64,000 nucleotides of DNA from Ectocarpus siliculosus. Its lineage: Eukaryota; Sar; Phaeophyceae; Ectocarpales; Ectocarpaceae. The position numbers and the translations under genes are program-made. This document shows positions 36,037 to 58,447 of the stretch, piece after piece. Within the stretch, counting starts at the first letter, position 1, and each line of letters opens with the position of its first letter. Location: NCBI GenBank assembly GCA_000310025.1, contig FN648564.1, forward strand, positions 434,316 to 498,315. Reading direction: 5' to 3'. The notes below the pieces were generated by a model. The model saw nothing but the letters and a program-made list of their open reading frames with translations, searched no databases and had not been told where the DNA came from.

Positions 36037-39000
36037 ATGAACCGAGCGGCCGCAACGTTATTGCGCAAGGCCTCTGGGGGTCAATCGGCCTGTCTACGAC
36101 GTCGCGGGAGACACCTGCCCTTGCGTAGATGTCTTGCTGCTTGGGGTTCCACCTTGCAGATAGAGCCCGGGGTCCAACGTGCGTTGGAGGAGGGACGCCC
36201 GATCGTAGCCCTTGAATCCACCATCATATCTCACGGTATGCCCTATCCGGAAAATTTAGCTATGGCCAGGTGCGTATGCGGGAGGGAGCGAGGGAGGGAG
36301 GGAGAGACAGGCACACGCAGAAAGGTAGAGAGACGTGCATGCTGCAGACATTCAGCATATACAGAGTACAGAGTAGCCGTGCACAACCAAAATCATGCCG
36401 GAGTCTTGTTTGTGTCACCACCAGCACGAAGTCGTTCTTGTTGCGATGTTGTAAGATGATCTCTCGAATAGCGACCCCCTATTTGGCTTCACGTTGTAAC
36501 CAACGGAACCATTTTTTTGCCGGGGAGTACACGCAGCAGGTAGGTCAACACAGTACCGTAAGAGTCGGAGAGTTGGCACCGGGTGCGATCGTTTTTTTAA
36601 ATGTTTTTCCCTCAGTTTTTTTATCGCACCCCGGTGCCATCTCCGACCGGTACCATCTCTCCGACCGGTACCATCTCTCCGACCGGTACCATCTCTCCGA
36701 CCCCGGTGCAGAAATGCATTTAAATCATTTCGTTTAGAATTTTCAAGGCACCCCGGTGCGATCTGTCCGACCCGTGCGATCCCCGGTGAAATGCACACAG
36801 GTGTTGTATGCACGCACCCCGGTGCCATCTCCCTGACCGTGAATGTAGGTACTCACGCACGCACACGGTCTTCTGCACACACACGCATATATATCTGAGC
36901 AAAAAGGCGGCGAAATACACATACAACATACAGTCGTGGCTCCGTTACAAGAGGGTACCTTACAAGAGGGGGCTCCGATATCAGAGGGTCGAATCGGTTG
37001 TCACGGACTCGACTCGCTATAGTAGGGTTACCCTCTTGTACAGAGCCCGGACCCTTTATAGTGGGTCACCCCACTATCGAGGGGGTTACCGCACTATAAG
37101 GGGGCTTGTAAGTTAGGGACTGTCGCCTTTCACTCACAAAAACAAACGCACCTTCCTCGCAACAAACGCCGCAGGAAGAATAAACCAGAGAGGAGCTGCC
37201 AAGGAATAGTGAGTGGTGTTTTGGTGAAACTGGTGGCAAATGCAAGGAGGATGATGAAAAGATTATGAAAGCACTCCGAAACGAACACATGTGCAAAGTA
37301 GCAGCCTTGGGTAAACACGTGCAGCTCTCTTCTATTTTATTGCTACCGTCTATCTTTAATCTGGAGAGTAGCTTAGCCCCCCCCATTGCACCCCCTCATG
37401 GGGTCACAGACCTTGGCCTTTCGAAGCACTTTCTGTGTTAGCCGCACTGAGACTGACGTGTTTCCGTTGGTTAGCTGGTTAGCGCGGTCGATGCAAATAA
37501 TAAAGGTACAATAAAACACACACGAACACACACATCGCGGCGCTAAGTAGAAGCAGGGGGCTGTTTGTGCTAGGTTAGAATTTCGTTCCTTTAGCATACG
37601 GTTGAACACCTGCAGCGCAGACAGTCAAGTTCTCCTCTAAATAAATGTGGGCGATGTGTGTATGTTGGTGTGCGCCAGGGGCCAGGGGGGGGTAGATAGA
37701 CCGTGTGTTGGTGCAATACAACACTTACTTATACCGTGTGTACATGAAGTTTCTCATGGTCGGAGAGGTGTCCAGGAATTCTAGCATGTCGTTCAACTCT
37801 GTAGACTAAGCGTTTTAAATGCATGCATGAACATGCACTTTACCTCCTTGTCAAATGGCTGCGTCAACTTGGCTGCGAGGCAATTATTCTCTGGAGATGT
37901 TTCCACTCCATGAACTAAATACAAAACGGAAAGCGTTGGAAAGCGTTGCCGATACGATCACAATCACCCGGCTTGCTTTGGGCGTGTGAATTCGGGCAAT
38001 CAGCCCACCACACGTGCGTACACTCCACCACGCTTACATGCTTACACAACCTACACGGCATTGGTACGCTGTGCCGTAGTCAAAGTGCCTTTGCTGCTCG
38101 AGATTTCCCGGTTTTCCCTCTATAAGAGGGTACCCTATGGAGCACCCTCATACAAGAGGGTAACCCTCTTATACCGATACAAGAGGGTGGAGAGCCGTTG
38201 TCACACCACCCTCTTATAACGAAGCCACGACTGTACCCCGAAAAAAGCGGCGAACTAGCGCATCTGAGTTGGTACCAGTGCACACGGTATCAATTGGTTC
38301 CCCCTTTCGTTTGGGTCTTCTTCTACGGATACCAGTACGTACGCAGAAGTACAATAGCTTCGGGTTGTGTAAGGTAGGGTAGGGTGCGGCTTGTACGTTG
38401 TGTGCTTGGTTGAGTGTACGGTTGGCAACGCAACTTCCACACCAATAAAAATATGAAAACAACTGGCATACCGCGTGAACCGCGACCATCCAATCATATG
38501 TAAAGGAGTGGCGCTCCGCTGACTCCGTCCCCACGTGTAAAAGGTACGCACATGCACCTCATTCCGGCAGCTGAAAAGGAGTTCCATCTTGGATGTGGGG
38601 GTCGGAGAGATCGCACCGGGTGCGATTCCTCCGACCCCGGTGCGTAAATCGAATTAAATGTCTTTTTCTCGGGCTTTTTATCGCACCCTGGTGCCATCTG
38701 TCCGACCGGTGCCATCTCTCCGGCCCGTGCCAACTCTCCGACTCTTACGGTAGTACAGTAGTGTTCCTTCTCTACCCACGCCCCACCATCAAACCTCACA
38801 AACAGGGGGGTCGAGGATATCATCAGGGAGAGAGGGGCAGTCCCCGCTACGGTGGCCGTCTTGCAGGGTCGCCCGCACGTTGGGCTCACGGCGTCTCAAC
38901 TGGAGTCTCTTGCTGAGGCCGGGCCTCGCGCGAGGAAGTGCTCCCGGCGCGACCTCGCCGTTGCCCTCGCCCAGGTGCGCGGATGGGAGTCAATAAATCA

Positions 39001-42000
39001 CGAACGTCTGCACCAATCGCACATGCATGCAGTCTTGTCGGCACGGGCACAAGCTGATGTAGGTAGACAACCTGGTTATTTTGAGCGAGTACTCGTGAAA
39101 ATGAGGCATGGGTTCTTTCAGCGATCGTTTTAGGAGCGACCCTACACCAAAGGCAAGTACTCTTTATCAGCGTGTTGTGTACGATCACACCAACCCCTCC
39201 TGTGTGCCTTCCTTGCTCTCACGTCCGATTTTTTGTCTCACTACATTGCCAATGTTCTTTGTTCTCGCGCCTCTCTTGACGAAGGGGGTCGACGGGGCGA
39301 CGACCGTGGCCGCCACGTCCTACCTCGCGTCCCTGGCTGGCGTCAAGGTGTTCGTGACGGGAGGGATGGGGGGCGTCCACAGGGGGGCGGAGACGACGTT
39401 CGACGTGTCGGCCGACCTTGCCGAGCTAGCGCAGACGCCGATCGTCGTCGTGTGCGCCGGGGTGAAATCCATCCTCGATATCGAGAAGACTCTCGAGGTG
39501 AGTTGCGTTGAGGTTTGTTTTAAGGATTTTGTTGGCTTGCTGGGGAGCGACGCACTCTCGTGTGGTATCTCGCTCGCTGTGTAGGTATCACGGGCACGTC
39601 GCGTGGGGAACAGGGTTGGTGTGATCGCCCGTGGTACTGTCCCGACTTCCTCGCAGATGAAGGAAATGGATTTTTTCCGTTTCATGCCGATGTCCCAAAC
39701 ATACAAGGTAGGCCCAAAGCAACCTACTACCTAGCTGACGCCGTCGAACGAAAATGCTCCCTTGTTGTCCCGCATCCGGAGCAGTCGGACAAGGTGTATC
39801 ACACCCCGTCCCTCTCTACTCTCTACTTGGTCACCGAGAGGTTTGTTTTCTGTGCAGAGGATCGCTGTGCCCGCCTGTTCCGGCGGTATACCATCGACAG
39901 CAGCTTCTCGTCAACTTCTGTCGTTGCGTGAAAACCAGGTGCTAGAGACGAACGGGGTCCCCGTGGTCTCTTTAGGCACCGATGACTTTCCAGCTTTTTT
40001 CAGCCCGTCCAGCGGGGTGCCGTCCCCGCTTAGGCTGGATACGCCTTCTGAGGTGGCGGCCGCGGCAAAGGTGGGCGTGAAAGGGGCGATGGTTAGTTCT
40101 GTGGCGTTACATGAACATGTGGTTTCTTGTTGCGCGCTCCGTTTTGTGAGTGCGCGGGGGTTAGGTATTTAACATATGCCACAGCAGCGAATCTTCAGTG
40201 GCATTGCGGGTTTTGGTTTATATCAAGGCGGCTTTAGTAGGTCTGCCACCAACACGAAAGTACAGACGGGTCTTGTTCATACCTTCCCGACACCTGCCCT
40301 CAACACACACCGCAAACACGGCGTTGATGCTATCGCTCTTTGGGCCACGACTGGTGAAAAAATATTTTTAGACTAACACGATTAGCGTCGCTCCGCACGC
40401 CTTGTCGACTCCATTGATCCTCGGGTCGCGATTGCAAAGAACCTCACAGGTCTTTGCGCTCAAAGAAGCTGAGTTTTGTTGTGCATCCGTGTCCCTTACC
40501 CTCTGTCTCGCCGACCCTTTTTCATCCCCGCGAGAAAGGCCGGGTTTGACCTCGGCATGCGCAACGGCATGGTTGTCGCCGTACCCAACCCTGCCCCGAT
40601 GTCCGGAGGGGCCGGCATAGACGCAGCGATTCACGAGGCTCTGGAACAGGCGGAAGCGAGGGGGCTCAAGGGCCGCGACATCACCCCCTTCGTGCTTGCG
40701 AGCGTGAATGAGACCACCGGAGGGCACTCGCTGAAGAGCAACGTCGCTTTGGTGAGGAGAAAACGAGCACAGCACACGAGGGCAGCGTGCTACCGGGCTG
40801 CTGCGCTGCGAATTGTGGTAGACTGTGCGCGGTCTGGGCATACCTAGGCTGGTTAGGTTGGCCAGAGAGTACGGCGAGCTACGGGTTGTCGTACAACATG
40901 ACAGGTTACCAGGGAAAGTTTGATTGGACAGGCTTTGTAATGGACAGAACGCAGAACCCCGTTGAGTGTGTGTGCACGAGGAGAGACATCGATAGACGTC
41001 GTTCTCAAGTTCAGGACCACGTGGACCACGTGGAAGCATGCCAGTAAACAAGAACCCAAAAGCTGTTTGCGTCGAAAACTACCGTCCGCACCCACAGATC
41101 CGCCCTTGACAATTGCTCACTCCATGTGCAATCTCGTGCTCTCTTCGTTTTGCGATCGAATTGTGCCGAACGCCAAGAACATAACCCGAACAACGGCGTC
41201 ATTTCGTTTTCCAAGGTTCGACATAACGCCAAGGTTGGAGCCGACATCGCGGTGCAACTCGCCGCATTGACAGGCAGACCTACTGCCCCGGAGGCTTTCC
41301 TCGCCAGGCCGACGCCAACAGCAGCGCCGCCGCTCCGCGTGGCCGTCTTCGGCGGGGCCGTGGCCGACATCGTCTCGAAACCTCCCACGGGGACCGCGCT
41401 TACGCCCGGAACGTCTACCCCGGGAGAGACGCGGCAGAGCTTCGGTGGCGTGGGACGCAACGTGGCCGAGGGCGTCGCGAGGGTCTTGCTGGCGCGAAGG
41501 GGCGACAACGTCGCAATGGGCATTGACAGCAGCAGCGACGGCAGTGGCGCTGTCGTCACTCTCGCTTCCGTGGTGGGCGCGGACGAGCCGGGCAAGGGGC
41601 TCGTGGCGGGTTGCGAAGAGGCCGGAGTTAACGCGGAAGCGACGGTGGAGGTGGGGTGTTCGAGCGGTGCAGGCGACGATGGCGGCAGCGACAAAGCAGG
41701 GACTGCGAGCTACGTGGCCGTTCTTGGAGGCGACGGTGATTTGGTGGCAGCAGTAGCTGACATGCGCGTTTTGGAGAGGATGACAGCGGTGAGTGTCTCT
41801 GAGAAAGTAAGTTACTTTGGGCCGCTTGAACTTTCGTGCAATTGCCTCTTTTCGACGTGTCCGGTGCTTCGGAACATGTTTCTTCAGCGGCAGCGAATGG
41901 TTTCTCACGCTTCCTTCTCAGGGGCATGCAAGGGGCTCGTCGGTAAATTCTTGGGCACGCCCAGAGCTCGCCAGGCATCAGTGACATGAGGGCCCATCGC

Positions 42001-43966
42001 TACTGTCGCGCGCACACGCTAAGACACCTCGAGAAATAGACCAATTCCCCGCACATCTGGTATTTTAAGCAGAAGCCAGCTCCACCGAATGTTGAGATGC
42101 AGCATATACCGTGATAACACCGAGAATGCCGCCCCCGGGGGGTATGTCACCAATCCTCCGATTGGAGTTAAGTTTATGTCATGTTCGCCGTTATAGTGTG
42201 GATTGGAGGAGCTTTGTAACCTACCTCTTAGTAGTGATTGGCAAGTACGTCGCCGCAAACGAACGCTAACGCAAAGGCTGTGCCAAGCGGGGTCGTGAAA
42301 TCACCGCGGTGGGTGCCAGAGAGCTTGGGAATCGCCAATGAGGGGCTCGAGTTTTCGTGATTATTCTTTTGAAATCGATTGATGCTCAAACAAGGCGTAC
42401 CCTACCTTTCACAATGGCCCCCTTTCACGTATAGGCCGCACGATTCCGTCGCTGCGTATACAGGACTTCGTGGAGAGACACGCCAGCATTATCGACGGAG
42501 CGTCAGTGGTTATCGCCGATGGAAACCTTCCGCCGGAAGGGTTTGCGCGGGTATCGGGGCTGTGCGCGGAAAGGAACGTTCCCCTCGTGTTTGAACCCAC
42601 CTCGGTTGCGAAGTGCTCCGTCCCCTTCTCGGCTGAGGTAAACCGCACACAGCAGTGTAGGTGCTCCGCTCAAGAACGTTAGCAAAGTTGCTATGCATAG
42701 CTGTTATCTCGTTGTTCATGGTATGTAAGGCTACCTAGCTAGCTGGGCTGTTTTCCATCTTTGTGAGAAACGGGTGGTAGTGCTCGTTCGTCCTTGTGGC
42801 GCGGCAGAGACACGACGGCGTGGCCGCATCCAGTGTCGGGTCACGCCTACCCCGGACGGTTAAAAGGGCGTGCAGCAACCTTCAGCTCGGTGAGATAAAC
42901 ACGGCACGTCTCCCCCCCCCCCTTCCCTTCTTGTATACCCAAACAAGGCTGTAGGAGGAATTGCCTTGAGCACACCAAACCTGGACGAGCTCGCAGCCAT
43001 GTCTTCGGCTGCTTTGGGCTGGCGGAAGGCGGGAAGCGGGGGGCGGGCAGTGAGGGAAGGACACTCCCTGGCAACGGCCGCGCTAGCAGACGGAAAGCTG
43101 GTGGATGCCCGGCCGCTTGGGCCGGCACTAAAGGCGGTGCTGGAGGCTATGCTCGGCGACGTGGCGACGCCGATGGCTCTTCTCGACGGCGCGAGGCACG
43201 TGGTCGTCACCTTGGGCAGCGCCGGCGTAGTGCTAGCGTCTGCCAGGCCCTGCCAACCTCCAAACGGGGATCTGTTAAACGGAAGCGACAATGACAACCG
43301 GGGTGTGTTAGAGTCGCCACTGGGGTCCGGTCGGTGGTTTGCCTTGTCGGCAGAACACTATCCCGCACTCCCTCTCGAGCGCCCAGGACAGGCCGGCGGG
43401 GCGATGGTCGCTGATTGCACGGGGGCCGGCGACTGCTTGGTGGCGGGGTTGGTCGGCGGCCTTGCGTTGGGGTGGTCGGCGCGGGAGAGCACTTGCTTGG
43501 GTCTGGTGAGTCGGCGGTTTCGTGACCGCTCACACGTTGTGTTGGATTTATTTGTCGATGCATGTGTGGCGGCCGAAGTGATTGTGATCCTTTCGAGGGC
43601 TACCTCTCTCCGTTTGTTGCTCTGCAGGAGCATAATAACGACGATAAAGGTACTGTTGATCCTGGTACCTGGTGGTCCTGTGGTTGCGTCATGGCCGATT
43701 CACACTCTTTGATCTTATTCGCATCTGGTGGCTGTACCTCCGCCCGTCTCTCTCTCGTATGCACATGTATCCTGCGCGGACTACACCGACAGCTATGCGC
43801 TCGACAGAGCGTCTTGGCCGACAGGGCGGTTCCGGAGACACTTGGAGACATTTTCGGAAGCACAGATAACGTCTGCCCAGAGGGGGCAAGAAGTGTCCTT
43901 TCAGCCCTACCAGAGGGCTACGGGCCGAAGGAAGTCCATCCGTGGGCCGTTGCACAGCAGCAGTAG
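36037..43966 (+). CDS. Bifunctional pseudouridine-5'-phosphate glycosidase / PfkB-type pseudouridine kinase (812 aa, 9 exons)
   Basis: Exons: 36037-36269, 38806-38974, 39285-39497, 39939-40070, 40539-40751, 41216-41788, 42464-42637, 42948-43505, 43793-43966. They total 2439 nt with all phases matching. The N-terminal half is PsuG (indigoidine synthase A family): '[20 protein letters not shown]', '[20 protein letters not shown]', '[20 protein letters not shown]', '[20 protein letters not shown]', '[12 protein letters not shown]' and '[20 protein letters not shown]'. The C-terminal half is a PfkB kinase: '[15 protein letters not shown]', '[13 protein letters not shown]', '[16 protein letters not shown]' and the anion-hole/catalytic '[16 protein letters not shown]'. 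Together they convert pseudouridine to pseudouridine monophosphate and then to uracil and ribose 5-phosphate. The Arg-rich start ([20 protein letters not shown]) resembles a mitochondrial presequence. Intron 1 (2.5 kb) is filled by nested TIR elements. Confidence 0.9.
36281..36304. repeat. (GGGA)n repeat
   Basis: A short tetranucleotide run just after the donor of exon 1 of the pseudouridine gene. Confidence 0.8.
36642..36702. repeat. 18-bp tandem repeat in the left arm of TIR element 1
   Basis: Three to four consecutive units of TCTCCGACCGGTACCATC. Confidence 0.85.
36931..38233. mobile_element. TIR element 2, nested in element 1, TA target duplication
   Basis: The left end CAGTCGTGGCTCCGTTACAA plus GAGGGT is matched by the inverted right end ending at 38233, with 2 differences in 26 bp. 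A TA dinucleotide lies immediately outside both ends (36929-36930 and 38234-38235), as for Tc1/mariner-type insertion. Both arms repeat ACAAGAGGGT/ACCCTCTTAT in both orientations. No transposase was found in 1.3 kb. It also carries a copy of dispersed repeat R at 37390-37535. Confidence 0.75.
37390..37535 (+). repeat. Dispersed repeat R, copy 1 (copy 2 at 55671-55802)
   Basis: It shares CACTGAGACTG versus TACTGAGACTG, a GTTGGTTAGC/ATTGGTCAGC block, GCGGTCGATG, and an AAAATAACACGCACA-like tail with the second copy. Identity is about 70% by eye. A 22-bp core is also seen inverted near 61829. Confidence 0.55.
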
Positions 43967-45110
43967 TGCTTGGTATCCATGGTTCACGTCGCCGTGTGCT
44001 CCTATTTGATATGTACCTTGTTGTCTACCTCAAAACATGCGAATCTCAAGTTATGCACCAAGGTCTGCTTGTTGTTCGAATTCCAAGATAAAATGCAGTA
44101 AATGCAGAAGTCTCGCGTCCTCCATCTGTCACGGTGGGGATCGGTTGCCACGCAGCATGATGTGCTACCCAGGGCACTCGTATTCAAAACGTTGTGTTTC
44201 TCCTCTGGTGTTCTTGGGTTAATACAAGGAACAGGGGCGTCGCAGTCTGCTTTTGAAGCGCTGATTCCCGTATCAGCGTGTATTCTTGATGGGAAACCCT
44301 GCAGTAGTATGTTGCCTACCATTGGTCAAAACCAAACCAAGAACCGGGGAATGCTTCAGGGTAGCACCATCTGATGGATTTGGCGTGCGCTGTGCCCTTT
44401 GCCTTACCATTTCGCCCACAACGCACCAATGCTTTAGCAAAGATGTTCCCATCGGACGACTGTTGCGCCTAGGCCAAGCGGTGCAGCAGGACCAAGGGGT
44501 CAGCCGTATTTCGCTGTCGACGATGTGATGTTTCAACTGGCGGGTATATGGAGGCGTGAACAGCAAGCCGGCGGTTCACATTGCCGTAGAATCAGCATAG
44601 AATTCACAGGCAGTTCGGGTGGCGGTACAGTCTAAACAATGGTTGTATCGACAAGGTATTTCATGATGAAATAGAAATTTTCATCGCCGCCGTTGGATCG
44701 AAGTTTCCGCCCAAAATCTTGTCAACAGCTGAATCTTGGAATCGTTTTCCTGGCCTCGCAGCTTCCATGGGCCACGCCAACAAGCGATTGTAGACATCAT
44801 TACGGTTGTTGCCACGTGTCAACGTACCGACATCGTGCTCGCGAAGGAGAAATAACACTGGAGGAGCAACGTTGGGGGGAAACGATGGCGCTGGTGCGCT
44901 GGCGCCTGGGCGCGGGGCGCGTGGCCCTCCCAGAGGCGGAAAGCCAGAGGGTGGAACCAAAATGCGACATGCACCCTCTTGGCAACCCTTCGGGAACCGG
45001 CAGAGGTCGCACCGCGGAACCAACCACCTGAGAGAGGCGGAGACCAGGGAGAGAGGTGGAGGCAGGTGCAAGCAAATAGGACGCTAGAAGGGCGGGGTAG
45101 ACACCACCCC
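43967..45110. other. Spacer between the pseudouridine gene and the rRNA methyltransferase gene
   Basis: No exon could be supported. A minus-strand frame (44661-45071) contains 'NRNDVYNRLLAWPMEAARPG' and 'LGGNFDPTAAM', which might be a retroelement scrap. Its remainder is Pro-rich noise opposite the 5' flank of the next gene. Confidence 0.35.
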
Positions 45111-48100
45111 ATGAAAGAGCTCGTGTTGTTGAGTATTGCCCTATGCTGCCTTCCCCGGTCCCACCTTGCATTTCGTACGACCGGAGGACTTCATGCCGTT
45201 TTTGGCGAAGTTGGGGCAGTGAGCGCCAGCCCAAAGACATCATTGTCATGTGGCCGCTCACTGAAGCGACCGCGGACAGATATGATGGCTTCGGATTCCT
45301 TGGTGGCTGTGGAACAGCCTGTTGTCGATGAGGTGGACGGGCAGGCGACGTGGGCGAAGGACTTCGAGCTTGATTTTCACGGCAAGGTGAGGCGCTTCTC
45401 TGCGCCTGCAACAGCAGCAGTGGCGCTCGAATTTTGCTGGATTCCTGGTTGCGTTCATGAATGTTAGAATTTGCTGGACCCCTCCCTCATCCAGGGTCGT
45501 TCTGACGATACCTTGTTCGGAGCAAAGTGAGCTGTGCACCCCCATATATCCTGGACCGTGGCCGCCGAGTTTCGGGGCAATCGACCCTTGGAAAGCGCTT
45601 GAGAAAATATATTCTTCCGCTGCCGACAAAGGCCTTGCTATTTGGAGATGTTTCGTTTCCTGCAGGGACCGCAGCTTCCAAGCATGTATTTACTTTGGTT
45701 TGGTCGTTTTGACAGTGTCGAGTGCTTCCAGCTCGTGAAGTAGCTCCACTTGTCTCTCTCCCTGCCCCCCCCCTCGATTCTATCTCCTGACTTCCAGTTT
45801 CTACCTCGTCTCCACCTTCTTCCTCCCCTCTCCCCGTCTGTGGGTACCAAATGCGTGTGGCATGTTGCATGTTGATATGCTGCAACTGCTATATAGGTCA
45901 TGCTGAAGGGCCTTCTCTTCTCCGAGACCCAGCAGCTCATGGAGCGCCTTGGAGAGAAGGCGGGCAGGGCGGAAGTCCTCGCCGGATGGCTTTACCACGA
46001 CAGGTGCCTAGGCCAGGGAAACGCGGAAAGGGGTTGATTCGTTGGTGAACACATCGCGTAGTATTTTGCATACCGCAACATCGTAGTGCTACCCTGGAAC
46101 AATCGTAGGCTTGTTCTGTTGGAAGAAGTTGGTTACAACGCCCTGTTTTGTTATTTTTCGCCCGGTGTTGTTTGGCCAGATTATCAACTTCAGAACGCCA
46201 CTCTTGACGTCCGAGAGCCAGGCCGCCACTGTCACTTGCTGCAGACACTGCGGTTGTCGCTTCTGAAGTGTGCCCTACCCGAACATCCCCTCTCCTTCCC
46301 CCGTTGTTGCTGTTGCTCTTCATGATGATGATCATGTTTATGGCGTTGTTGCTGTCGGGTTCATACGGTGCCCTGCGTCCCTTGCTTACCAACCCCGTGT
46401 GAACCGCGTCAATTGCTGACCAGAGCTCATGTTGCGCCCCAGTCCTTCACAGGTAGACGAGGTAGAGACACTGCTGTCAACCATCGGGTAACGGGTCATC
46501 ATCTAAACCGAAACAGTAACACAACAAATGGCTCATTCCGTGGCTTTCTTTTGTGCCCGAAGCAGCCCCCCCCCTACGTTTGTTTTACAACGGCTTGTCC
46601 GTCCTATCTAAATAGACGCCTAATCCGAGACATTGCCGAGACCGCGGGTGGCGCCGGCAGCGCGGAGCCCGGGGGCGACGCCACGAACAGCAACACCAAC
46701 AGAAGCGGCAGTTTAGTGAGCTCCAAGAGCCGAATCGGGAAGAAGACAAGGGACGCCGTCCGAGAGGTCGCGACAGCTGATGGGGGCCTTGAGCTAGAGG
46801 TAGGTAGCATACACGTACATCTACATGCTCTGCGCACGATAGACCATGGACCTCCCCCCCTCGCCTTCCGGCTTAGTCCTACGCAGGGTTCTTTCTTGCT
46901 TGGCTCGTTTTGTTGGATTTCGTGTTTTTGTGGAAGAGGAGGCGTCAGGAAGAGCGAGCGGCGGTGTTCGGATCGACCTGTTGGGCATGTCGGGCCGGGG
47001 AGGCTTAGTCGAGCGTGAGGCAGAGGGAAACCCTGAAAGGCACATGCAGCCCCTTCGCGTCGGTATTAGCACTGAACAGCTTACACGTGATGGAGCGTGG
47101 GCTGCAAGCAAGCAGTGGATAGAGACAAAAGTGTTTTGAACCACAAAAATTATGCACTCCTCTGCGGAGACTTTTGCTCCTCTGTACGCCGAGAGGTCCG
47201 GTCTGTACTCGTGCGCTCGCCACTGAGGACAGGCGTGTACTTTGAACTATTAATAATGCGAGGAGTTGCCCTTTTCCCGACGACAATCTCCTTGCCTGGG
47301 CGCACCTGGGACGTGCAGGACGTGCAGCTGGCGGCAGACGGTACGCGCAAGCTGGTGTCGGTGCTCACGTCGGGGGAAGGGGCGGGGAAGAAGGTTGAGA
47401 CGGTCATCATCCCCATGCTCAGGTATGTCACGAAGCGTCCAATTGGACTGGTCTACTCAGAGCCCAGACGCTTTTTCGCCCTGTGTCGCTGTGATTCCAG
47501 TACAACCCCAGGGTAGATGGGTACAGCGTTCGATGTTTCTGCCTCCAGGTGGTTGGCGTACCATTGAACCCGTTGCCGCGACTGTTCACGATTAATTCGG
47601 CTTGCTCGTTGCTGGCGAATGGTGTTCTTAATCTTCACACCGTGTGCATGTGTGCCAACGCGCCTAACCCACTGCGTATTCGCCAGCTAAAAGCGGTATT
47701 ACCAGTGCGCATGCGTGCGCGTACTTACGCGTGCACACAAAGGGCTTACTTGACCGCGGTTGTTTGTCGCCGTGCGCGGCGCGCTTTTGTGTGTGCCGTG
47801 CGTGACGACGTGCGCAGAGGGCCTCAGAGGGAGCCGCGCTATACGGTGTGCGTGTCTTCCCAGGTCGGCTGCGCCATGAACTGCCAGTTCTGCTTCACGG
47901 GGAGGCTCGGGCTCATGGCCAACCTGCAGGCGGCACAGGCGGGTGACCTTCCTATTGGCAGACGCTTTACTCAGTAGGCGACCTCTTCTTCGAGAGTTTA
48001 CGTTCGTCGTTTTACAGTGTCCGTGGTTCGGGTGGTACTTTGGAGCATGGTCACTGTTGTATCTGCTTGGGAGTCTTGGTTGTTTGTCGTTTGTTTTGGT

Positions 48101-49275: not shown

Positions 49276-49343
<68 letters not shown>

Positions 49344-51109
49344 ATCTATCTCTGTGTGTGTTTGTGTGTCTTTCTGTGTCTCTCTCTCTTTCTCTCGCTC
49401 GCTGTCTCTGTTTCTCTCTATCGATCTCGTGTGTGTCCCTTTCTCGCTGTCTGTCTCTCTCTTTGTTCTTCTCGTTCTCTATGTCTGTCTCTTGCTTCTC
49501 TTTCTATCTCGCTCTTTCTCCATGGTGCCTTTTTTTTGTGAGGGCTGTTAACGACGTTTGTTTCGTTGTCCTCTTTCTTTTGTTTATCCGGAGCATGGAC
49601 AGAAGCAAAGGAAGGGCATCTGCCTGTACAGTATGTCTGCCCCCCCTCGTTGCCTTGTATCGCTGTTTGATTTATGTGTCCCCGGTGTCGTTCGTCGCTC
49701 GTTGGATGCGCAGGGTGGCATGCTGATCGCTCATTATAATGCCCTCATGCTAGACCCTTTGGTTTCTCGCTTTCCTCGAGGTAAAGCTAGGAAGCAACCA
49801 ATTATATTCACAACCTTCGCCCACCTGCTGCACGCCCCCCTCCCTCTGTCGTTGCGACGGCCGCCGCAAACCTTCGGCCTGCAGCTCATCCCAGTGAACC
49901 GGCGCTACCCGCTGGAACAACTTTCCGAGACGCTCAGGACGCACTTCCCCCGGAGTTCGAAGCCTGCGGCGGATGAGCCCACGGGAGTGGCTCTCGACCA
50001 CGCTTCGTCCGCGGCGGCTCCAGCACTAGGCCCGAAGGATGTCGCAACAGGTTCCGCTGAGAGAAAATCAATGGCAGGGCCTGGGAGGAAGTTGGAGCAG
50101 GAGACGAACCTGCTGGCACGAAGAGATGGCGCAGAGCGACGGCCCCCGTCGATCCCGACGGAGCCACAGCAGCGGCCACGATCACTGGCAGACGGCGGCG
50201 GGAGCAAGCGCGAGGGTCCTCAACGGAAGGGAAGGAGGAGAAGGCCACGGATCTTGGCCGTGGAGTACACCCTCCTCGGCGGCGTTAACGACTCCCTCGG
50301 GGACGCCGGGCGGCTGGCCGAGTGGCTGGAAGGGGTGGCCTGCGTGGTGAACCTGATAACCTTCAACGCCCACGCGGGGACGCCGTTCTCGCCTTCGTCC
50401 CCGGAGGCGGCGGAGGCGTTTCGGCGGGCGCTGGCGGCCCGGGGACAGCTGTGCACGTTCCGGGACAGCCGCGGGGATGACGGGATGGCGGCCTGCGGGT
50501 GAGTGTTCTACGCTTAAAGTGCTTGGGAACCGGCGTCTCCCTGATGGGGGGTAGGGTGGCTCGATCTCTCTGCCAGTCCTTCAACATTTTGCGTGCAATT
50601 GGTATTTGGTTGGGCGGTGACCGTAATTTCGCACGTGGGCGGGGGGAATTGTCATGTTTCGTTGAAGATTCGTATTGCGCACAGATGGTATGCATCGGGT
50701 TATGCGGTGTTTTTTTTTGTTTTTTGGGGATGGAGAAGGAATCGTAATGGTTGGTTGAAGAGAGGGGCATGGTGGCGATTATGAGACGGGCGATTCTTAC
50801 AAAGAACATTGCAGCAAGCTAGCTATGCCTCTCTCACCCCTCCGTGTCTTGGGGAGGAGAAATGACGGCAAAAAAAGAAAAAAGGAAGGGATGTTGAGTT
50901 GGTGTTTGGTCTTGACAATGACGTGCCGTGATGATGATCGCCCAGTTCGCCCCTCTCTTCTCTGTCCTCGTCGAAAACGCGCCCACCCTTGCATCCCCCC
51001 AACGCTTTGCAGGCAGCTAGGCGGCGAGTCCATGGCGGGGGGCGGGGATCGCGCGAGAAAGCCTGTCCCCGTCACGTGGAAGTCAACCGACACGCCCTCG
51101 ACAGCGTAG
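45111..51109 (+). CDS. rlmN: RlmN/Cfr-type radical SAM rRNA methyltransferase, plastid-type N-terminus (598 aa, 9 exons)
   Basis: Exons: 45111-45386, 45897-46003, 46616-46799, 47319-47422, 47818-47938, 48417-48529, 49090-49270, 49885-50498, 51013-51109. They total 1797 nt and all phases agree. Family landmarks: '[17 protein letters not shown]'; '[13 protein letters not shown]' and VETVIIP; the radical-SAM cluster '[20 protein letters not shown]' (CxxxCxxC); '[13 protein letters not shown]'; '[15 protein letters not shown]'; 'LAISLHSV'; '[13 protein letters not shown]'; '[12 protein letters not shown]'; '[16 protein letters not shown]'; and the methyl-carrying Cys in AACGQLGG. RlmN methylates C2 of A2503 in 23S rRNA and A37 of some tRNAs. 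The N-terminus [20 protein letters not shown] followed by F looks like a signal peptide with an A-F plastid step, suggesting plastid rRNA as target. Exon 8 carries an insertion of about 95 Pro/Arg/Ser-rich residues. Confidence 0.9.
48136..48170 (+). repeat. Relic duplicate of the 3' end of rlmN exon 5
   Basis: In the intron after exon 5, a stretch of about 35 bp resembles the last coding bases of that exon (47895-47931), including an exact GGCCAACCTGCAGGC. Elsewhere it carries substitutions and a one-base gap, so it cannot code in frame. Confidence 0.6.
49278..49341. repeat. (CT)n microsatellite
   Basis: It begins a few bases after the donor of rlmN exon 7 and continues as a degenerate CT-rich tract to about 49520. 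Confidence 0.95.
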
Positions 51110-52835
51110 CGCCTAAGCTTTGGAATATAGATTGCCGCGTGCCCACGGCTGCTTCCCGAGTTGTTGGGGTTTTTTTCATCCAGTGTGGGACCAGCAGCAA
51201 CAACAGTGTGCCCACAGCAGCGTGAGTGTCAACCGACACGCCCTCGACAGCGTAGTGCCCAAGCTTTGGAACATCGGTGTTCGAGAATGGGATCAGCCCG
51301 GCCGGGTAGAACCGTCAGCTGAAAGCACCGTATAGGTTTTTGCGGCCACAAGCAACGGTGAGGGTAGGGGTTGTACCCTGCTCTGCTGACTTTCTTTCCA
51401 GTGACTGTACTCACAAACAGTACCCGGAAGGCCTGCTGCTTGGTGGTCGCGAAAACGAGCGGACTTTTCCAAAGGAGTCTCTGTCGTGGTAAATCTGTAT
51501 GCGAACGTTGAAAAACTTGCTGCTGGGGTTAGTTGTGGTGTCGTTTCCAGGAAGTGAGAGGGTGCCAAACGTGTGGGTGGTTTTCTGCAGCGGGAAACTG
51601 TTCATGATGCGGCAGGGTCCCCAACACCTTGGAGCACTCTTTGACTTGCTGGTGCATGCGGCGCCAGGACCAGGGTCAAGAGTCGATGCGCAGAAAGTCG
51701 AAACCGAAGAACAACTTTGTAATGCAGCTTTCTCGTGCGCTTGTCAAGATCATGGTTGGCTTTACATCAGCGGTACAGGACGAGGTACTTGTTGTCATGT
51801 TGCCCTTCTTCCTAGTAGTACAGAGGGGCAGGCATACTTAAGAAGGCTCGCGAAACACGATAAACAAAAAGAAACGGAAGCCATATCAAGAAAAAATGGG
51901 AAGCGTATAAACATTTGAACTGACATGGACATTGCGCGGCCTGGGCCATGACAAAAAACGGTTCGGTGATACAGTACGTAATGTTTCCCTCTCAAATCTC
52001 CGATTCTGAACTACAATATGGTCCAACGTAAAAGGTGGCACGTCCGCTGGTTGTTGACGGACAGGTCCAATAAATATGCGTCCCTGGTACACAGGGTGAC
52101 CAACAGGGCTGACAAGGAAACGCTGCATGTAGGGGGACCATCTGCGCGCGAATTCTCGTCGCTACGGTACCCGCGCTCCCCCCCCCTGAATACAAACACC
52201 GCGTTCGGGAATCCACGGAAACCCGACAACTCGACACGGAACAAAAGCAAGCAGCAAACTGAACAATAATAACAAGGAGCAGACGGGACAAATATACAGG
52301 CTCTGTACACACGCGTTGACGTGATTCACGAACAGTAGAGGCACCGCAGAGCCGTCTAGACGGCAGCCTCAAGAAGCAGCACTTACTCAAGCGAGCTGGA
52401 AAAGCGTGGGAAGCAATAGTACTGCTGCTTGCAAGGGTTTGCTCGAGCGCAGATATGAATCATCTTCTGCTCATCCGTGCCATAGAATGCACGGAGCCCC
52501 CGGCTCTCTTTTTTTCCCCGTTGTATTCAAAGGAGAACGAAGCGCCTGGAGATGCAACCCTTTGCTCTAGGTCGATGACATGTGATCCCTGTCTTCGAAA
52601 CACCACCGACAGCACTTCGTCCCCTCTCGCACTGCCGAACCCAAAGCCTCTACGACAAGCAACAAAAAATGGGCGACTTTTCGTTCTCCCCTGATCAGCG
52701 CCTTCTACATACGGGCACCCACTTTCGAAGAAGGATGTACCCTTTGCGGTGCTTGATTGACAACCTGGCTCCGCGGTTCTCCCTTCGGATACGTCATGGA
52801 GGAGGGGTGTTTGCACGGTTCGGCGGCAGTAAAGA
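51110..52835. other. Convergent intergenic region between rlmN and the dehydrogenase gene
   Basis: It contains a 44-bp direct repeat: 51082-51125 (covering the last codons and stop of rlmN) reappears at 51228-51271 with two or three changes. Nothing else coding was recognised. Confidence 0.5.
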
Positions 52836-55800
52836 TCACCATGGGAGCTCGCAGAAGGGCCCGTAGCTTTCGGGGTCCTCGAGCGCGTAGACGCCCAGGC
52901 CTAGGCTCTTGCTTCCTTGGGGAGCGATGAATTTCCCCGTGGTCTCCAGAGTCAGGTCCTCCACGGCCTGCGCGCAACAAACAACGGGGCGATGGTGTCA
53001 CCGGTAGTAGGGGGAGGGAAGAGAGGGGGGAGAGATAGATAGACGTGTGCTGGCGGGCCTTGCTTGCCTCCAGGTCGCGGTGTCGCGACCTCTCGGCAAG
53101 AGGACATTCAAGGGAGGAAGAGGAGATCGAATGGGAGGTGTAGCCGACGGTCGTTGCTCGTTTGCGTTAACGTCGGACCATCACGACCGGTGACCGCTCC
53201 GCGAGGGAACAAGGAGCTTGATGGTGGCTGCTCCGGGTAAGACGACGAGACTATGCAAAACACCCACAGGCGCGTTACCGATGCTGGATGATACACCTCA
53301 TTGGGGGCACAAAACACCTACCACTTGCACTTCGTTGGAATCATCTTCCCACAACGCAACAAAACTCGGCTACCCCACAACAAAACCTCCAGCAAGCAGC
53401 ACAAAAGGTGTGTTTGAATTCAGTGTAAAACTGGACTCTTCCCGTAATTCTTTGTTATTGGGTACGCCATGTACGCCATCGAAAGAAAAAAAACTCTTCC
53501 CCAGGTGCACACCTTTACTATGCCGGGCGCTGCTTCTTCGGGCCCGATGGCACCCAGTTCGTCGTACTTGTCGGCGTATATCTCGGTCATGCTCGTCTTC
53601 ATGAAGCCGGGGTGGATGTTCACGATCGCCACACCGCGGGTCTTCACGTCCAGCGCGAAGAGCTTGCCCATCATGTTCTGAGCGCATTTACTCATGTGGT
53701 GCCTGCGGTGTTTTTTTTTTTTATTATTCGTCCGGTTCCCGTATGGCAACGTGTCGTAGGCGGAATAGAAGCCGGATCACCATTTACCGTGAAGAAGCGA
53801 GCCAACAACGCGGAGGGATTATTGTTATGACAAGAGAGTGATGAAAGCATGGTTGCACTGTTGCCAACCGACCAAAAACAAAAGACAAGAACGGGAGCAA
53901 GCAGACTGCCGAACAACCATTGCGTGCGTGTTGTTTGACAAGGCTTCGCCTTTTCTTCCTGTACCCCATGCATGTTTTAAGCAAAACGAGGATGCTCGTA
54001 GGAGAGAACACCTAAACGCTCTACCAAGCGAAAAACGAACCGCAAAGGCTACCGCTGTAGCGGCACCGCAGAAAATCCCTACCATTCTCGCCGTTGTGGA
54101 ACCCCCGACAACAAAAAAAAGAGGAAATACTGGGTAGTTAGTCTGTGACCACGGAAGGCACCAGCGTCAGTTGAATAGGTCCCGGTGTGTAAGAAAGACG
54201 CCGAGCAGAGACCAGACCGGTTCTTAGCGCAACGCGCAAACAGCAACAACGAGCGCCTCGGGGGTATCGACCCTTCCTCACCCGTAGTTGTTCCCCCCCT
54301 CTACCTCCGTTCGGAGGCCGACCGACCCGCCTTCCGACGTGATCATGCCGATGTTCGATCCCTTCCGCAACAGTCCTGACACTACTAGAGCCTGGAGGAC
54401 ACGGAGGGGTCCGAGCACGCAAACCTGCCGGGTTCCAAACGAAAATTGAGTGCAGAAACACGGGGAAAGGGTAGGGGCGGGGGACGCACAGAGAGAGAGA
54501 CATAAAAGAGAGGCAGAGAGACGCATAAGAGACACAGAGAGGGGGGTGCACGAGAAAGAGAAAGAGAGAGCAAAAGGAAGACAGACAGAGGGAGGCATAG
54601 AGAAAGAGAGAGAGAAGCAGAGACAGAGAGAGGGATGCAACAAACGCACCGGTGGCAAGGTTGGTGCTCGAGTTCATTCAATGTTCGAGCATGTATAACT
54701 TTGTGTGACGCGCCAAACACCACCATGTCGGCGAAATGCTGACCAGTCAACTGATCTCTCAGTACTTCAGGGCCATCGCCGTCGTCCAGGAGGCATGCAG
54801 AGAAGAAAGTGAGCACGTCTGTGTGTGTGCGGTAATGTTTTGCGGCAAGCCATCGCTGGGTGCCAAAAGTTGCCCCATCGCATACTTCCCTGTACATGTA
54901 CTCGTGAGGATAGAGGGGGGGCAGGAGGTTTGATCAGTTTTACCCTCGGGGGTAGCTCGAAGCACACACTTCCCCACTCGTAGCTAAATCTCTGCTAAAT
55001 TATCATGACCAGTCCAGCCCACATCCCATTGGGAGAAGATCGAGACAGAGAATTGCTTGTCGAGCCACTAGGGTTCGAGGGAAGTGAGTGGAAGGCAGCC
55101 AACTCAAAGAGGTAGGTGAGTGGGTAGCCCATGCGTACCTCGTACATCTTGACGGCCGCGTCGAACTCGGGGTCTTCGAACGTGTCGGGGATCAAAATTC
55201 TGTGCGTGAGAGGCACAATAGTGTGGGAGGGGGGACACGGAAGGGGAGGGGGTCATCAGGAGCAGATAATACAGCGGTGCGGCCGGCCGAATGTGAGACA
55301 ACTTGATAAACCAATACATATATTCGCGTCAGCTAAGCCCGAAACACTCGCTTGTACCCACTCAAGAACTCGCGCAATCGTTGTAGCATTGGGGGCCAGT
55401 CAAGATCCTTGGTGCCAACACAATCCGATACTCCTTGGATCCCTGCAATCGTGCTAAACAATGCTGACAGTGAACGCGCGTTTCGGACATGGTGCACATG
55501 AAGACAAGCAAGCGTGTATCGGTTGAGGTCGCACAGAGGGATGGATGTTACCCCTTCAGCTATCTTGCGAGCGAGGGGTGCAGCAAGTCCTTTCCCTCTT
55601 CCTCGCCCACAGTTGAAGCCCAACACTTCCACCCGCTACAAAACCGCAAGGGGGCAAACGGAAGCACACACACACGGGGTCCCACACCATGGTCTTTAGA
55701 AGCATTTCCTGTTTCAACCGTACTGAGACTGGCGTATTTTCATTGGTCAGCCGGTTGACGCGGTCGATGTCAATCGTAAAATAACACGCACAAGACACGC

Positions 55801-56682
55801 AGGACGCACCCAGCGTTGCATATGACGTAGTCGAGAGTGCCGCCCTCACCCAGCTCCTTCTGCACCGCCTCCACGAGCTTGGTCCCGGAGTCCTTGTCGG
55901 AGACGTCGATCCCCTCGAGCACGCTAACCCCGACAGCCTGTTTGGCGGCACCGATCAGTTAGCACATCACGCCACCCACGGCAAGAAAAGAAGAGCCCCA
56001 ATCATAATCTTCGAACGGGGAGTCTTTCGGTGTTGTTATGTTTTTACGCGCTTTTGTCCAAGAAACGAAGCTACGTTTCGGCGTGCTAAATAGGAGGAGC
56101 AAGGGGGGAAAGAAAGGAGGATGAGGAGGAGTTGGAGTCGTCTAGACGGCGGGTTGGGTCGGAGGAAGTCCCCGACCGGGCAGACGCACAAGACTTCCGT
56201 TGAAGTCTGATGAACACCACCACCAAGGGCCACGTTGAAGGTCATGCGGGGCGTGTGCGTTGTTGATGAACTTCGAGTTGCTCCTCTGGATGGATGTCGG
56301 CTTGATTGTGGGTTCTTGCGGCGAACGTTCGCATCGCTGGCTTCTGTTCGGGCGGTGTATCACGCACAGGATGGTTCCTCAAACGTACCATCGGTGCAAG
56401 GGCTAAACATGAAATCCGTTGAATTTTTTTTTCTTCGAGTGCAGATAGCCAAAAAAGAAAAAAAGAAGGGGGAGAGTCCGACCTCTTCATGCATCCTTGC
56501 CCAACTCGGTAAATTACCTCAAGATCGGCGTTGGTCGTCCTAGTGGTGGCCAGGACTGTACTCTCTCGCTTCTTCAGGTGTCGCACGACCTCCAACCCCA
56601 ACCCGCGGTTCCCGCCGATGACCAAGCAGTTTCCCGGGAGCGGCGATACGGGGGGAGTCTCGTTGGTCGAGGAGGACGCCAT
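52836..56682 (-). CDS. Short-chain dehydrogenase/reductase (272 aa, 6 exons)
   Basis: Minus-strand exons, in order: 56518-56682, 55810-55937, 55139-55199, 54282-54424, 53513-53702, 52836-52967. They total 819 nt with all phases matching. The start is MASSSTNETPPVSPLPG; an in-frame frame continues upstream but ATG 56682 gives normal family length. It has the cofactor motif 'LVIGGNRGLGLEVVRHL' (GxxxGxG), 'EGIDVSDKDSG', the 'VICNAGIL' NNAG-type strand, 'LGPLRVLQALVVSGLL', 'IGMITSEGGSVG', 'HHMSKCAQNMMGKLFALDVK', and 'VNIHPGFMKTSM' (PG motif). This is the C-factor-like, Rossmann-fold SDR type. The residue four before the catalytic Lys, normally Tyr, reads His; the nearest Tyr is six before. Substrate unknown. 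It is transcribed towards rlmN (convergent). Confidence 0.85.
54450..54640. repeat. AG-rich low-complexity tract
   Basis: A degenerate GAGA/CATAGAGA tract in intron 3 of the dehydrogenase gene. Read on the minus strand it gives Ser/Leu/Cys-rich nonsense frames. Confidence 0.8.
55671..55802 (+). repeat. Dispersed repeat R, copy 2
   Basis: Partner of 37390-37535. It lies in intron 2 of the dehydrogenase gene, ending 8 bp before the donor side of exon 55810-55937. Confidence 0.55.
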
Positions 56683-57058
56683 AGCCCTGCTGTGATTCGC
56701 ACGGGAGAACACGTACAGCAGCAGATGGCGTTGGGTATCTCGTGGATGCACTGAACGGTGCGCCAAGTCAACCAAGGCAGTGAGTGCCTGTCTGCCCTCC
56801 AGCCCGAAGATCGGACGACGATCATGCGCGCCTGACCATTGAAAAAGCTTTCATAAAGGGAGAATCTGTCTGGGTAAGTTGGTCTACTGCAGGAGCTTTC
56901 CCAGCAAGGGGTACGGGAAAATATCCGCGGTGATGTTCGTCGGTGGGTCCGAGTTATGGACGTCAGCGTATCGCCCGGCGTACTGCTGTAGTCATCACAC
57001 ACCCTTTGATATGACACACGAGTCTTCGTATTCCGCTAAACCACCCTTCTTTTCAGGA
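56683..57058. other. Upstream flank of the dehydrogenase gene
   Basis: Presumed promoter region on the minus strand. No clear TATA box or other motif was recognised. Confidence 0.35.
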
Positions 57059-57060
57059 TA

Positions 57061-58445
57061 CAGCAGTAGTGGTCCCGGTATAGTGCTGGTGCGGTCGAGA
57101 CGATGTCACCGGCATTATAGCAGGCCACCCGCATTATGTAAAGTTGGCCTGAATATTGTGCCGGTTCTGGCAATATTCAGGGTCCGCAATAGTGCCGGTA
57201 CCGGGGCTACTCAGGAAATCATCGAGTAATTCAGGACGAAAACATGATCGTACACCGGCGTATTGTACAAATACACTATGCATCACGTGAAAGGGAAGAA
57301 AGTGGATGCCGTAGCAGGAGGTTTGGTAAGCCTGTCGCGGTCGAGCATCATTCAGAGGCGCGTGCATCGATGGGCCGTGGCCCAACACTCATCATATCTT
57401 TGGGTGTGCTGCAGCACCTTTTGGTGTGTTGTACACAGCAGCGTTAGTGAAAAAACTCCTGTTGACGTGGTGTTCCACCCTAAGTTGTTACCTTGACCCG
57501 ATGCCTCTCCTTGACTCGCGAAAGTACACATGCGACAAAATAGACATGGCATATCGTAGCGCAAACATCGGGAAAGAAAACAAAGCAAAGACCCAACAAC
57601 ATCTATTTGAACACACTGACTCATTCTTGTAACTAGCAACATCCGGGAGACGTCCATCTGAATGAACCATTTTGCGAAACTGGTCCCGCCTACGTTACAT
57701 GCCCCCTCCAACCAGAATATTGACAAAGTTGTACTGTACCACACAATAACCGACGAATAGACAATGTCAGACTGCTGGTGTTGTCGTTCCATGAATAGGT
57801 GTTATCAGATTCGACACATCAAACAATACAACTCAAACACCATTTTTGGGACACAACCCGTACCTGGTACTGAAGCAAGAACATGACCGCGCACTACTGG
57901 TACTGAGCCATATTCAAACTTAGCAGCATTGCTCTGCGGCCCTTTATCAGATCTTGTCAAAGGAGCCGGCTATGTCTGCCTGTCGGGCTAGCATTGAGGC
58001 ATGACCTGCGATAATCGCCATCTTGGTCTTCTTGTTCGGCCGAGAAGTTGTGTGTGTTGTGTGTGTTGGTGTGCGCTGTGTGCGCGAGCAAATGGGTTAT
58101 ATATATTACTCATACTCATAAAATCGCAGAAAGACTAGGCTACTGTACATGTCGAGAGACAACCACAGTCGAAGGGGGGGTGTTGAAGTCTATGCAGTGA
58201 GTGGGAGAAAGACCGGCTGGATGCAGGCTTACTTTCAGTCCATTTAAGCCTTTACAACGTGAGATTTTTCTTGAAAACCGGCATCATTCACGGACCAGAG
58301 AACCCCCAAACCGGCACTACAGTGGCATTTGCCTCTATAATGCCGGTACCGGCATTATACCGGGCTACAGCCGGTCCAGCCGATTTCACCGGCATTTACC
58401 GGGCGACCGGCATTATTCGACCGGCATTATACCGGACCACTACTG
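57061..58445. mobile_element. TIR element 3, CCGGCATTAT-iterated arms
   Basis: The right end read inward is CAGTAGTGGTCCGGTATAAT plus GCCGG. The left end reads CAG, then CAGTAGTGGTCCCGGTATAG plus TGC, so the ends match over about 25 bp with a one-base gap and a few changes. TA lies immediately outside both ends (57059-57060 and 58446-58447). Both arms repeat CCGGCATTAT or ATAATGCCGG many times in both orientations. No transposase frame is present in 1.4 kb. The left end has an extra CAG. It shares overall design and the CAGT(A/C) start with elements 1 and 2 but not their sequence. Confidence 0.72.
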
Positions 58446-58447
58446 TA

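What the first reader, a model, noticed from the sequence alone, without database searches (positions are those of the whole stretch)
36551..58447. Three TIR elements that iterate their own terminal motif through both arms
Elements at 36551-38753, 36931-38233 and 57061-58445 share an architecture but almost no sequence. Each has inverted ends beginning CAGTA or CAGTC, each of the latter two is flanked by TA, and none has a transposase frame in 0.9-1.4 kb. In every case the subterminal DNA is made of many copies, in both orientations, of a short motif taken from the element's own end (CCGACCGGTGCC, ACAAGAGGGT or CCGGCATTAT). This looks like a family in which the terminal recognition motif diversifies and is amplified inside the element, perhaps as iterated transposase binding sites. 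I do not know a described family with this design.
Basis: partly seen in the sequence, partly recalled or inferred. Interest (0 to 1): 0.8.

Follow-up and report, generated by a model that had tools for sequence, protein, structure and literature searches.

The report
Pogo-type transposons with iterated arms
These are stripped-down jumping DNA pieces that land at TA sites and carry rows of a short repeated motif near each end; a gene-carrying relative of one of them has similar ends, so the pattern is probably a landing pad for the enzyme that moves them.

Summary
The three elements are real, with corrections. A is 36556-38750 (ends CCGTAAG, not CAGTA); B (36931-38233) is nested inside A; C is 57064-58445. 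All are dispersed families in an unnamed 189 Mb genome: tip patterns match 439 (A), 133 (B) and 168 (C) times, reversed patterns 0, 1 and 0. TA flanks 37 of 38 A ends, and A copies without B show B's empty site. The arm motif is family-specific, far above chance, and absent outside the arms in 37 of 39 distinct copies. None encodes a transposase, but a partner exists for the C lineage: a 3.67 kb element with a DDE_1 (pogo-type) domain, related ends and an iterated 3' arm. Of 94 DDE_1 hits, 17 lie inside 16 pairs of that tip (0.05 expected; one defined the tip), against 0 of 75 hits of another transposase family. B shares C's tip backbone. A's enzyme was not found. Best reading: non-autonomous, probably pogo-superfamily elements whose iterated arms are transposase-binding sites (binding inferred). 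CACTA and hAT elements have comparable arms: a new variant of a known kind.

The parts
36554..36555 (.). TA target-site copy, left of element A
   Evidence: 19 of 19 left tips found among 21 A loci are preceded by TA
36556..38750 (+). Element A with B inserted; 2195 bp filled, 890 bp without B and one TA
   Evidence: ends compared across copies; tip pattern 439 vs 0 control
36556..36836 (.). A left arm: 15-nt motif sites starting at 36565, 36650, 36668, 36686, 36756 and 36822 (one +, five -)
   Evidence: positions converted to window coordinates
38590..38750 (.). A right arm: motif sites starting at 38602, 38691, 38709 and 38727 (one +, three -)
   Evidence: converted; 18-bp tandem period also
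36929..36930 (.). TA target-site copy, left of element B, inside A
   Evidence: empty site ATACAACATACCCCG in other A copies
36931..38233 (+). Element B, 1303 bp, TA|CAGTCGTGGCTCCG...CGAAGCCACGACTG|TA
36931..37110 (.). B left arm: 12-nt motif sites starting at 36945, 36960 and 37030
   Evidence: converted
38110..38233 (.). B right arm: motif sites starting at 38120, 38150, 38163, 38177 and 38208
   Evidence: converted
37150..37540 (+). B interior segment, part of which is shared with an element that has C-like ends (L036, C52) and with other dispersed places
38234..38235 (.). TA target-site copy, right of B
38751..38752 (.). TA target-site copy, right of A
   Evidence: 18 of 19 right tips found are followed by TA
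57059..57063 (.). TACAG: TA plus an extra CAG before C's left tip
57064..58445 (+). Element C, 1382 bp, CAGTAGTGGTCCCGG...CCGGACCACTACTG
57064..57199 (.). C left arm: 13-nt motif sites starting at 57078, 57108, 57127, 57153 and 57187
   Evidence: converted
58270..58445 (.). C right arm: motif sites starting at 58277, 58310, 58335, 58348, 58388, 58406 and 58420
   Evidence: converted
58446..58447 (.). TA target-site copy, right of C

Best explanation
A, B and C are non-autonomous cut-and-paste DNA transposons that insert at TA and duplicate it. B and C belong to one cloud of related families (tip backbone CAGT-GTGG-CCG-TATAA) that includes transposase-encoding members with a DDE_1 domain, the pogo-type domain (that equation is recalled, not from a call). 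A has the same architecture and target site but an unrelated tip, and its enzyme is unknown. The tip is taken to be the cleavage site. The motif first seen just inside the tip and repeated, mostly 3 to 6 times per arm and in both orientations, is most likely the binding site of the transposase's DNA-binding domain, arrayed so that several protomers load on each end and pair the ends before cutting. Shown: TA duplication for A and B, empty site of B, family structure, arm confinement of the motif, and a DDE_1-encoding relative with related ends and an iterated 3' arm. Inferred: mobilisation in trans, binding of protein to the motif, its role in pairing.
For: TA flanks 37 of 38 A ends. B's uninterrupted empty site with a single TA in 6 of 16 A loci without B, and uninterrupted with substitutions or 1-3 nt indels in 5 more. 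Five A copies with B at the same place have flanks without mutual similarity (9 flanks compared), so A stayed mobile with B aboard. Tip counts 439, 133 and 168 vs 0, 1 and 0 control. Motif sites outside the arms: 0 in 14 of 14 A copies, 0 in 12 of 13 distinct B, 0 in 11 of 12 distinct C. DDE_1 element at C16:3611661-3615334: tip CAGTGGGGGGCCCTCTATAGTGCCGGT and 5 motif sites (up to 3 mismatches) in the last 200 bp against a shuffle mean of 0.17 (max 2), with 0 in the 282 bp further in and 0 in the 366 bp beyond. 17 of 94 DDE_1 hits lie inside 16 of 43 tip pairs, 0.05 expected (the tip was read from one of them, so 16 of the other 93 are independent of its choice); 10 of 10 pairs of 3.67-3.69 kb hold one; 0 of 75 DDE_Tnp_4 hits do. 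C tip vs P tip scores 15 and B vs C 12, each reached by 0 of 1000 shuffles.
Against: No DDE_1 hit lies inside a pair of A, B or C tips as defined by their own patterns, although only the first 100 tips of each list were visible; the link from the window's C to the DDE_1 element rests on tip and motif similarity through intermediate subfamilies. A's tip is unrelated to the DDE_1 element's tip. Motif columns in A arms are no better conserved than the rest of the arm (0.921 vs 0.905 left, 0.915 vs 0.922 right). 77 of 94 DDE_1 hits lie in no listed P-tip pair. The 5' arm of the DDE_1 element, beyond the 29 bases of its tip, and its DNA-binding domain were not read. For Hermes, the paper's own heading calls a role in cells of extra transposases bound further inside the ends 'unlikely' (PMC10368747), so iterated sites need not all be used.
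Confidence: 0.7

Rival explanations
1. The iterated motifs have no binding role: they are neutral local amplifications (slippage, gene conversion between inverted arms) of end sequence, kept because short forms made mostly of arms are copied well.
For: Motif columns are not more conserved than neighbouring arm columns in A; site number per arm varies (A left arm 2-6; C arms 0-7); A has an 18-bp tandem period and D has 42-bp tandem units in both arms.
Against: Simple slippage does not explain motifs in both orientations in B and C arms, nor their absence from interiors in 37 of 39 distinct copies, nor their presence in the 3' arm of the transposase-encoding element.
Confidence: 0.2
2. A (and perhaps D) belongs to another TA-targeting superfamily, so the shared architecture is convergent and not inherited.
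For: A and D tips score within the range of shuffles against B, C, P and C52 tips, apart from A against one C subfamily (9 of 1000 shuffles reach it). DDE_Tnp_4 transposases are also present, 75 hits.
Against: No DDE_Tnp_4 hit lies inside any of the 29 A pairs formed from the 100 listed of 439 tips. A published Ectocarpus library classes a 217-bp MITE and its 4.4 kb partner as Tc1-mariner (PMC12477816, passages read), and A's short forms here are 216-228 bp: a size match only.
Confidence: 0.4
3. They are CACTA (En/Spm) derivatives, well-known owners of iterated subterminal motifs.
For: Same arm design: short conserved tip, diverging subterminal motif in direct and inverted orientation (PMC2613891, passages read).
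Against: Ends are CCGTA or CAGT, not CACTA; duplication is TA, not 3 bp; the related encoding element carries DDE_1. Transposase_21 found nothing here, but nothing rang in the controls either, so that search is uninformative.
Confidence: 0.03

Closest known systems
pogo superfamily of IS630-Tc1-mariner (families Mover, Lemi, Passer and Fot-like occur in Chromista; PMC7386202, passages and section 8 read)
   Same: TA duplication; DDE_1 domain in the related encoding element (DDE_1 as pogo's domain is recalled); length 3.67 kb within the reported 1.2-5.2 kb; short TIR
   Different: That paper's main text has no occurrence of 'subterminal', and iterated arms are not described in the passages read. 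DNA-binding domain, triad spacing and phylogeny were not tested here, so no pogo family is assigned
CACTA / En-Spm elements such as soybean Tgmt (PMC2613891, passages read)
   Same: Short conserved tip plus a subterminal motif in direct and inverted orientation whose sequence differs between families; TNPA binds it in Spm/En
   Different: CACTA ends, 3-bp duplication, different transposase
Hermes (hAT) subterminal repeats (PMC10368747, passages read)
   Same: Short motifs iterated near both tips; the ones nearest the left tip are bound by an N-terminal domain of the transposase
   Different: Different superfamily; 4-nt motifs; a role for the inner ones in cells is called unlikely there
Sleeping Beauty IR/DR ends (Tc1/mariner; PMC7827188, passages read)
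   Same: TA target, more than one transposase site per end needed for pairing
   Different: Two direct repeats per end (plus a half site on the left), TIRs of about 220 bp; here up to 7 sites per arm, in both orientations
Ectocarpus TcMar-N1_Ec32 (217 bp) and its partner TcMar-2_Ec32 (4.4 kb) (PMC12477816, passages read)
   Same: Tc1-mariner MITEs at high copy number mobilised by a longer partner; A short forms here are 216-228 bp
   Different: No sequence compared; host identity of this window not established

Membership tests
pogo superfamily | TA target-site duplication | tested here: met
   A: 37 of 38 ends flanked by TA. B: empty site. C: right end flanked by TA, left end TACAG; no empty site of C was found or sought genome-wide
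pogo superfamily | DDE_1 transposase encoded between the same ends | tested here: inconclusive
   Met for the P subfamily, whose ends resemble C's: 17 of 94 DDE_1 hits in 16 tip pairs. None between listed A, B or C tip pairs (100 tips listed of 439, 133 and 168)
pogo superfamily | CENP-B_N, HTH_Tnp_Tc5, HTH_psq or similar DNA-binding domain, and DDxD spacing | not tested
Tc1/mariner with DDE_3 transposase | DDE_3 domain present in the genome | tested here: not met
   0 hits from 11 candidates; the model rings in 3 of 14 control genomes, 2 over its cut-off. Mariner's Transposase_1 model (name recalled) was not searched
MITE (non-autonomous TIR element) | No coding capacity, short copies with shared TIRs | tested here: met
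   No listed ORF of 180 aa or more. Short pairs: A 216-228 bp (9 of 29 pairs), B 160-201 bp (8 of 16), C 152-174 bp (4 of 16). Window copies are longer, 0.9-1.4 kb
CACTA / En-Spm | CACTA ends and 3-bp duplication | tested here: not met
CACTA / En-Spm | Transposase_21 transposase | tested here: inconclusive
   0 hits, but nothing rang in the 14 controls
Sleeping Beauty-type IR/DR | Two direct repeats per end | tested here: not met
   Sites per arm: A 2-6, B 1-6, C 0-7, mixed orientation

The most novel reading that the evidence does not exclude
A clan of TA-inserting pogo elements in which the cleavage tip is held nearly constant while the iterated recognition motif is replaced throughout both arms, changing which transposase reads the element: B and the C52 element share about 270 bp of interior (78%) but carry different arm motifs (ACAAGAGGGT against TATAGTGCCGG). 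Non-autonomous families would arise and separate by such concerted motif switching, matched by changes in the DNA-binding domain of a transposase.
Probability: 0.2. Interest if true: 0.65.

Novelty: new variant of a known kind. Interest (0 to 1): 0.42.

Why it matters
Iterated subterminal motifs are described for CACTA and hAT elements; finding them in an encoding and in non-encoding members of a pogo-type, TA-targeting clan suggests that arrayed end sites evolved repeatedly. Families with a common tip backbone, different arm motifs and a partly shared interior make it possible to test how a transposon changes its recognition sequence in both arms at once, and whether that isolates it from its former enzyme.

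Tried and rejected
CAGTA as the end of A was rejected: other copies start at TA|CCGTAAG. The 3.15 kb B copy on C110 looked like an encoding relative; its extra length is another element, D, without a convincing frame. Exact tip patterns in viral contigs gave 0, 1 and 2 matches; the 160 bases printed around each of the 3 matches show, by eye, no iterated arm. Pfam on nine window ORFs found nothing. An inverted-repeat scan of the whole window found 81 pairs; the 25 shown are simple repeats, so further elements of this kind in the window are not excluded. CACTA membership was rejected on ends and duplication. The extra CAG at some tips was considered as an excision trace and left open.
Full report
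Observation. The sequence at both places was read and each element was searched in the window's own genome, 189,456,909 bases in 492 contigs, no name given (these searches score only the best 40 candidates, so copy lists are lower bounds). All three are dispersed repeats. For A, 20 of the places found were fetched. A is TA|CCGTAAGAGTCGGAGAG...CTCTTACGG|TA, 36556-38750: of the tips found among 21 A loci (20 fetched plus the window), 19 of 19 left and 18 of 19 right ones are bounded by TA, and the 14 bases printed beyond differ from copy to copy; five internal matches at 5-6 mismatches were set aside as not being tips. B is TA|CAGTCGTGGCTCCG...CCACGACTG|TA, 36931-38233, and lies within A. C is CAGTAGTGG...CCACTACTG, 57064-58445, with TACAG to its left and TA to its right. 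No listed ORF of 180 aa or more overlaps any of them.

Empty sites and order of events. Across B's position, 6 of 16 A loci without B read ATACAACATA directly into CCCCG with one TA; 5 more are uninterrupted with substitutions or 1-3 nt indels, 1 has an 11-bp insert and 4 could not be aligned there. So B inserted into A at a TA and duplicated it. Five A copies, the window's among them, carry B at this place; 9 of their 10 flanks were compared (one left tip was not found) and share nothing at E 0.001. A therefore went on moving with B inside. A B copy on contig C110 holds a further TA-flanked element, D, 1947 bp, whose two arms are arrays of a 42-bp unit. A search for D's empty site gave nothing clear: three B copies read CTGCAGC where CTGTAGC would be expected.

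Iteration. In the window copies the site counts are A 10, B 8 and C 12, against means of 0.0, 0.13 and 0.23 in 60 dinucleotide shuffles; D has 20 against 0.03. Motifs of A, B and C do not occur in one another; the B motif scores 8 in D, whose unit contains a similar stretch. In copies with both ends found, counting the outer 300 bp (A) or 200 bp (B, C) as arms, sites elsewhere number 0 in 14 of 14 A, 0 in 12 of 13 distinct B and 0 in 11 of 12 distinct C. One of the 12 C is only 185 bp long, so it has no middle; the one C exception has 4 such sites and none in its right arm. Loci without both tips were dropped first (3 of 17 A without B, the window's included; B from 27 loci and C from 30 loci tried, several being one element under two ids); four of the 13 B sit inside A copies and share descent. 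Mean sites per arm are about 4.4 and 4.6 (A), 3.4 and 4.4 (B), 4.2 and 4.7 (C); the B and C means count the doubled ids twice. Against a binding role: in an alignment of 12 of the 14 A copies the motif columns are no better conserved than other arm columns (0.921 vs 0.905 left, 0.915 vs 0.922 right), although arms exceed the middle (0.877) and tips exceed both (0.98, 0.97).

Copy number. Tip patterns give A 439, B 133 and C 168 matches (up to 3, 2 and 3 mismatches); reversed controls give 0, 1 and 0. An earlier, too narrow C pattern gave 6 against 1. The C pattern also catches some tips of the P kind below. Of the first 100 places listed for each, convergent pairs show short forms of 216-228 bp (A, 9 of 29 pairs), 160-201 bp (B, 8 of 16) and 152-174 bp (C, 4 of 16), beside forms of 0.7-3.5 kb.

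The enzyme. DDE_3 has no hit in this genome, DDE_1 has 94 and DDE_Tnp_4 has 75; that these Pfam models stand for Tc1-type, pogo-type and Harbinger-type transposases is recalled. Downstream of one DDE_1 hit (C16:3613376) two short stretches could be read. The second contains an element end, TA|CAGTGGGGGGCCCTCTATAGTGCCGGT read inwards. Its last 200 bp hold 5 motif sites at up to 3 mismatches, in both orientations, against a shuffle mean of 0.17; the 282 bp further in and the 366 bp beyond the end hold none. At the stricter threshold used for C there are 2. A pattern for this tip (P) gives 270 matches, 0 in the control. Of the first 100, 43 convergent pairs form, and 16 of them enclose 17 of the 94 DDE_1 hits, where 0.05 would be expected; one of the 17 is the hit from which the tip was read. 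They enclose 0 of 75 DDE_Tnp_4 hits. All 10 pairs of 3669-3689 bp hold a DDE_1 hit; pairs of 1778-1807 and 2336 bp hold none and look like internally deleted forms. By the same test no DDE_1 hit lies inside an A, B or C pair from the 100 tips listed of each.

Relation of the families. Tips of C, two of its subfamilies, P and the C52 element form a cloud (scores 13 to 22, 0 of 1000 shuffles each), and B joins it (B-C 12, 0 of 1000; B-P 6, 1 of 1000; B-C52 4, 7 of 1000). A and D do not, apart from A against one C subfamily (9 of 1000) (the tip strings are common forms that I read off the copies). The C52 element (L036) has ends and arm motifs of the C type, though its left end is not preceded by TA and its right end is partly duplicated; about 270 bp of its interior is 78% identical to B. 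Either the arms were replaced around a common interior, or the interior is an independent repeat that entered both; the segment also occurs elsewhere without the rest of B, so this is open.

Literature. Iterated subterminal motifs with a conserved tip are described for CACTA elements (PMC2613891, passages) and short ones for Hermes, where a role of the inner ones in cells is called unlikely (PMC10368747, passages); Sleeping Beauty needs two sites per end (PMC7827188, passages). Two surveys of pogo and Tc1/mariner contain no occurrence of 'subterminal' (PMC7386202 and PMC7325037). In nine paper searches I saw no title or opening of an abstract about a pogo family with iterated arms; the library holds only openly licensed papers and the listed papers were not read through. 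I recall, without a call, that Drosophila pogo transposase was reported to bind a 12-bp sequence repeated within its inverted repeats; if so, the principle is known there in small form. The Ectocarpus library has Tc1-mariner MITEs including one of 217 bp, and reports nested insertions carried by several copies of its giant transposons (PMC12477816, passages); A's short forms match in size, which hints at a brown-algal host, but no sequence was compared.

Verdict. Ordinary in kind (non-autonomous DNA transposons), unusual in the regularity of the arms, with a pogo-type relative for one lineage found here. Binding of protein to the motif is inferred.

Noticed in passing
window 36556-38750; L069, L070, L071, L072: Five A copies carry B at the same place, with flanks that share nothing: a nested pair that moved as a unit.
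   Followed up: yes
window 57059-57063; L021/L023, L026, L014, L018, C457: Some copies have an extra CAG (or CAGT) between TA and the tip at one end; among the first 100 tips listed for each, 2 B and 4 C matches begin AGCAGT. Possibly a trace of staggered cutting.
   Followed up: partly
L027/L029, contig C110 (D within the B copy): Element D, 1947 bp, TA-flanked, arms made of 42-bp tandem units, tip CAACTACTTTAGG; a fourth design of the same kind.
   Followed up: partly
L036 1029-2299 (C52): Element with C-like ends and motifs, of whose interior about 270 bp (78%) matches B's interior.
   Followed up: partly
window 55664-55800: A fragment of 117-129 bp of the same interior repeat, 77-81% identical, with no such ends noticed around it.
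   Followed up: no
G000 P-tip pairs: P pairs cluster at about 1.80, 2.26, 2.34 and 3.67-3.69 kb, many with exact tips, which suggests recent activity and a few recurrent internal deletions.
   Followed up: partly
G000 C2:1865710-1866756, C2:3750521-3751567, C461:137259-138307: Three pairs of nearly equal size (1043-1045 bp) with similar tips; possibly duplicated segments.
   Followed up: no
window 36631-36702 and 38690-38742: A's arms contain short 18-bp tandem arrays of the motif; in B and C most sites are scattered rather than in tandem.
   Followed up: no
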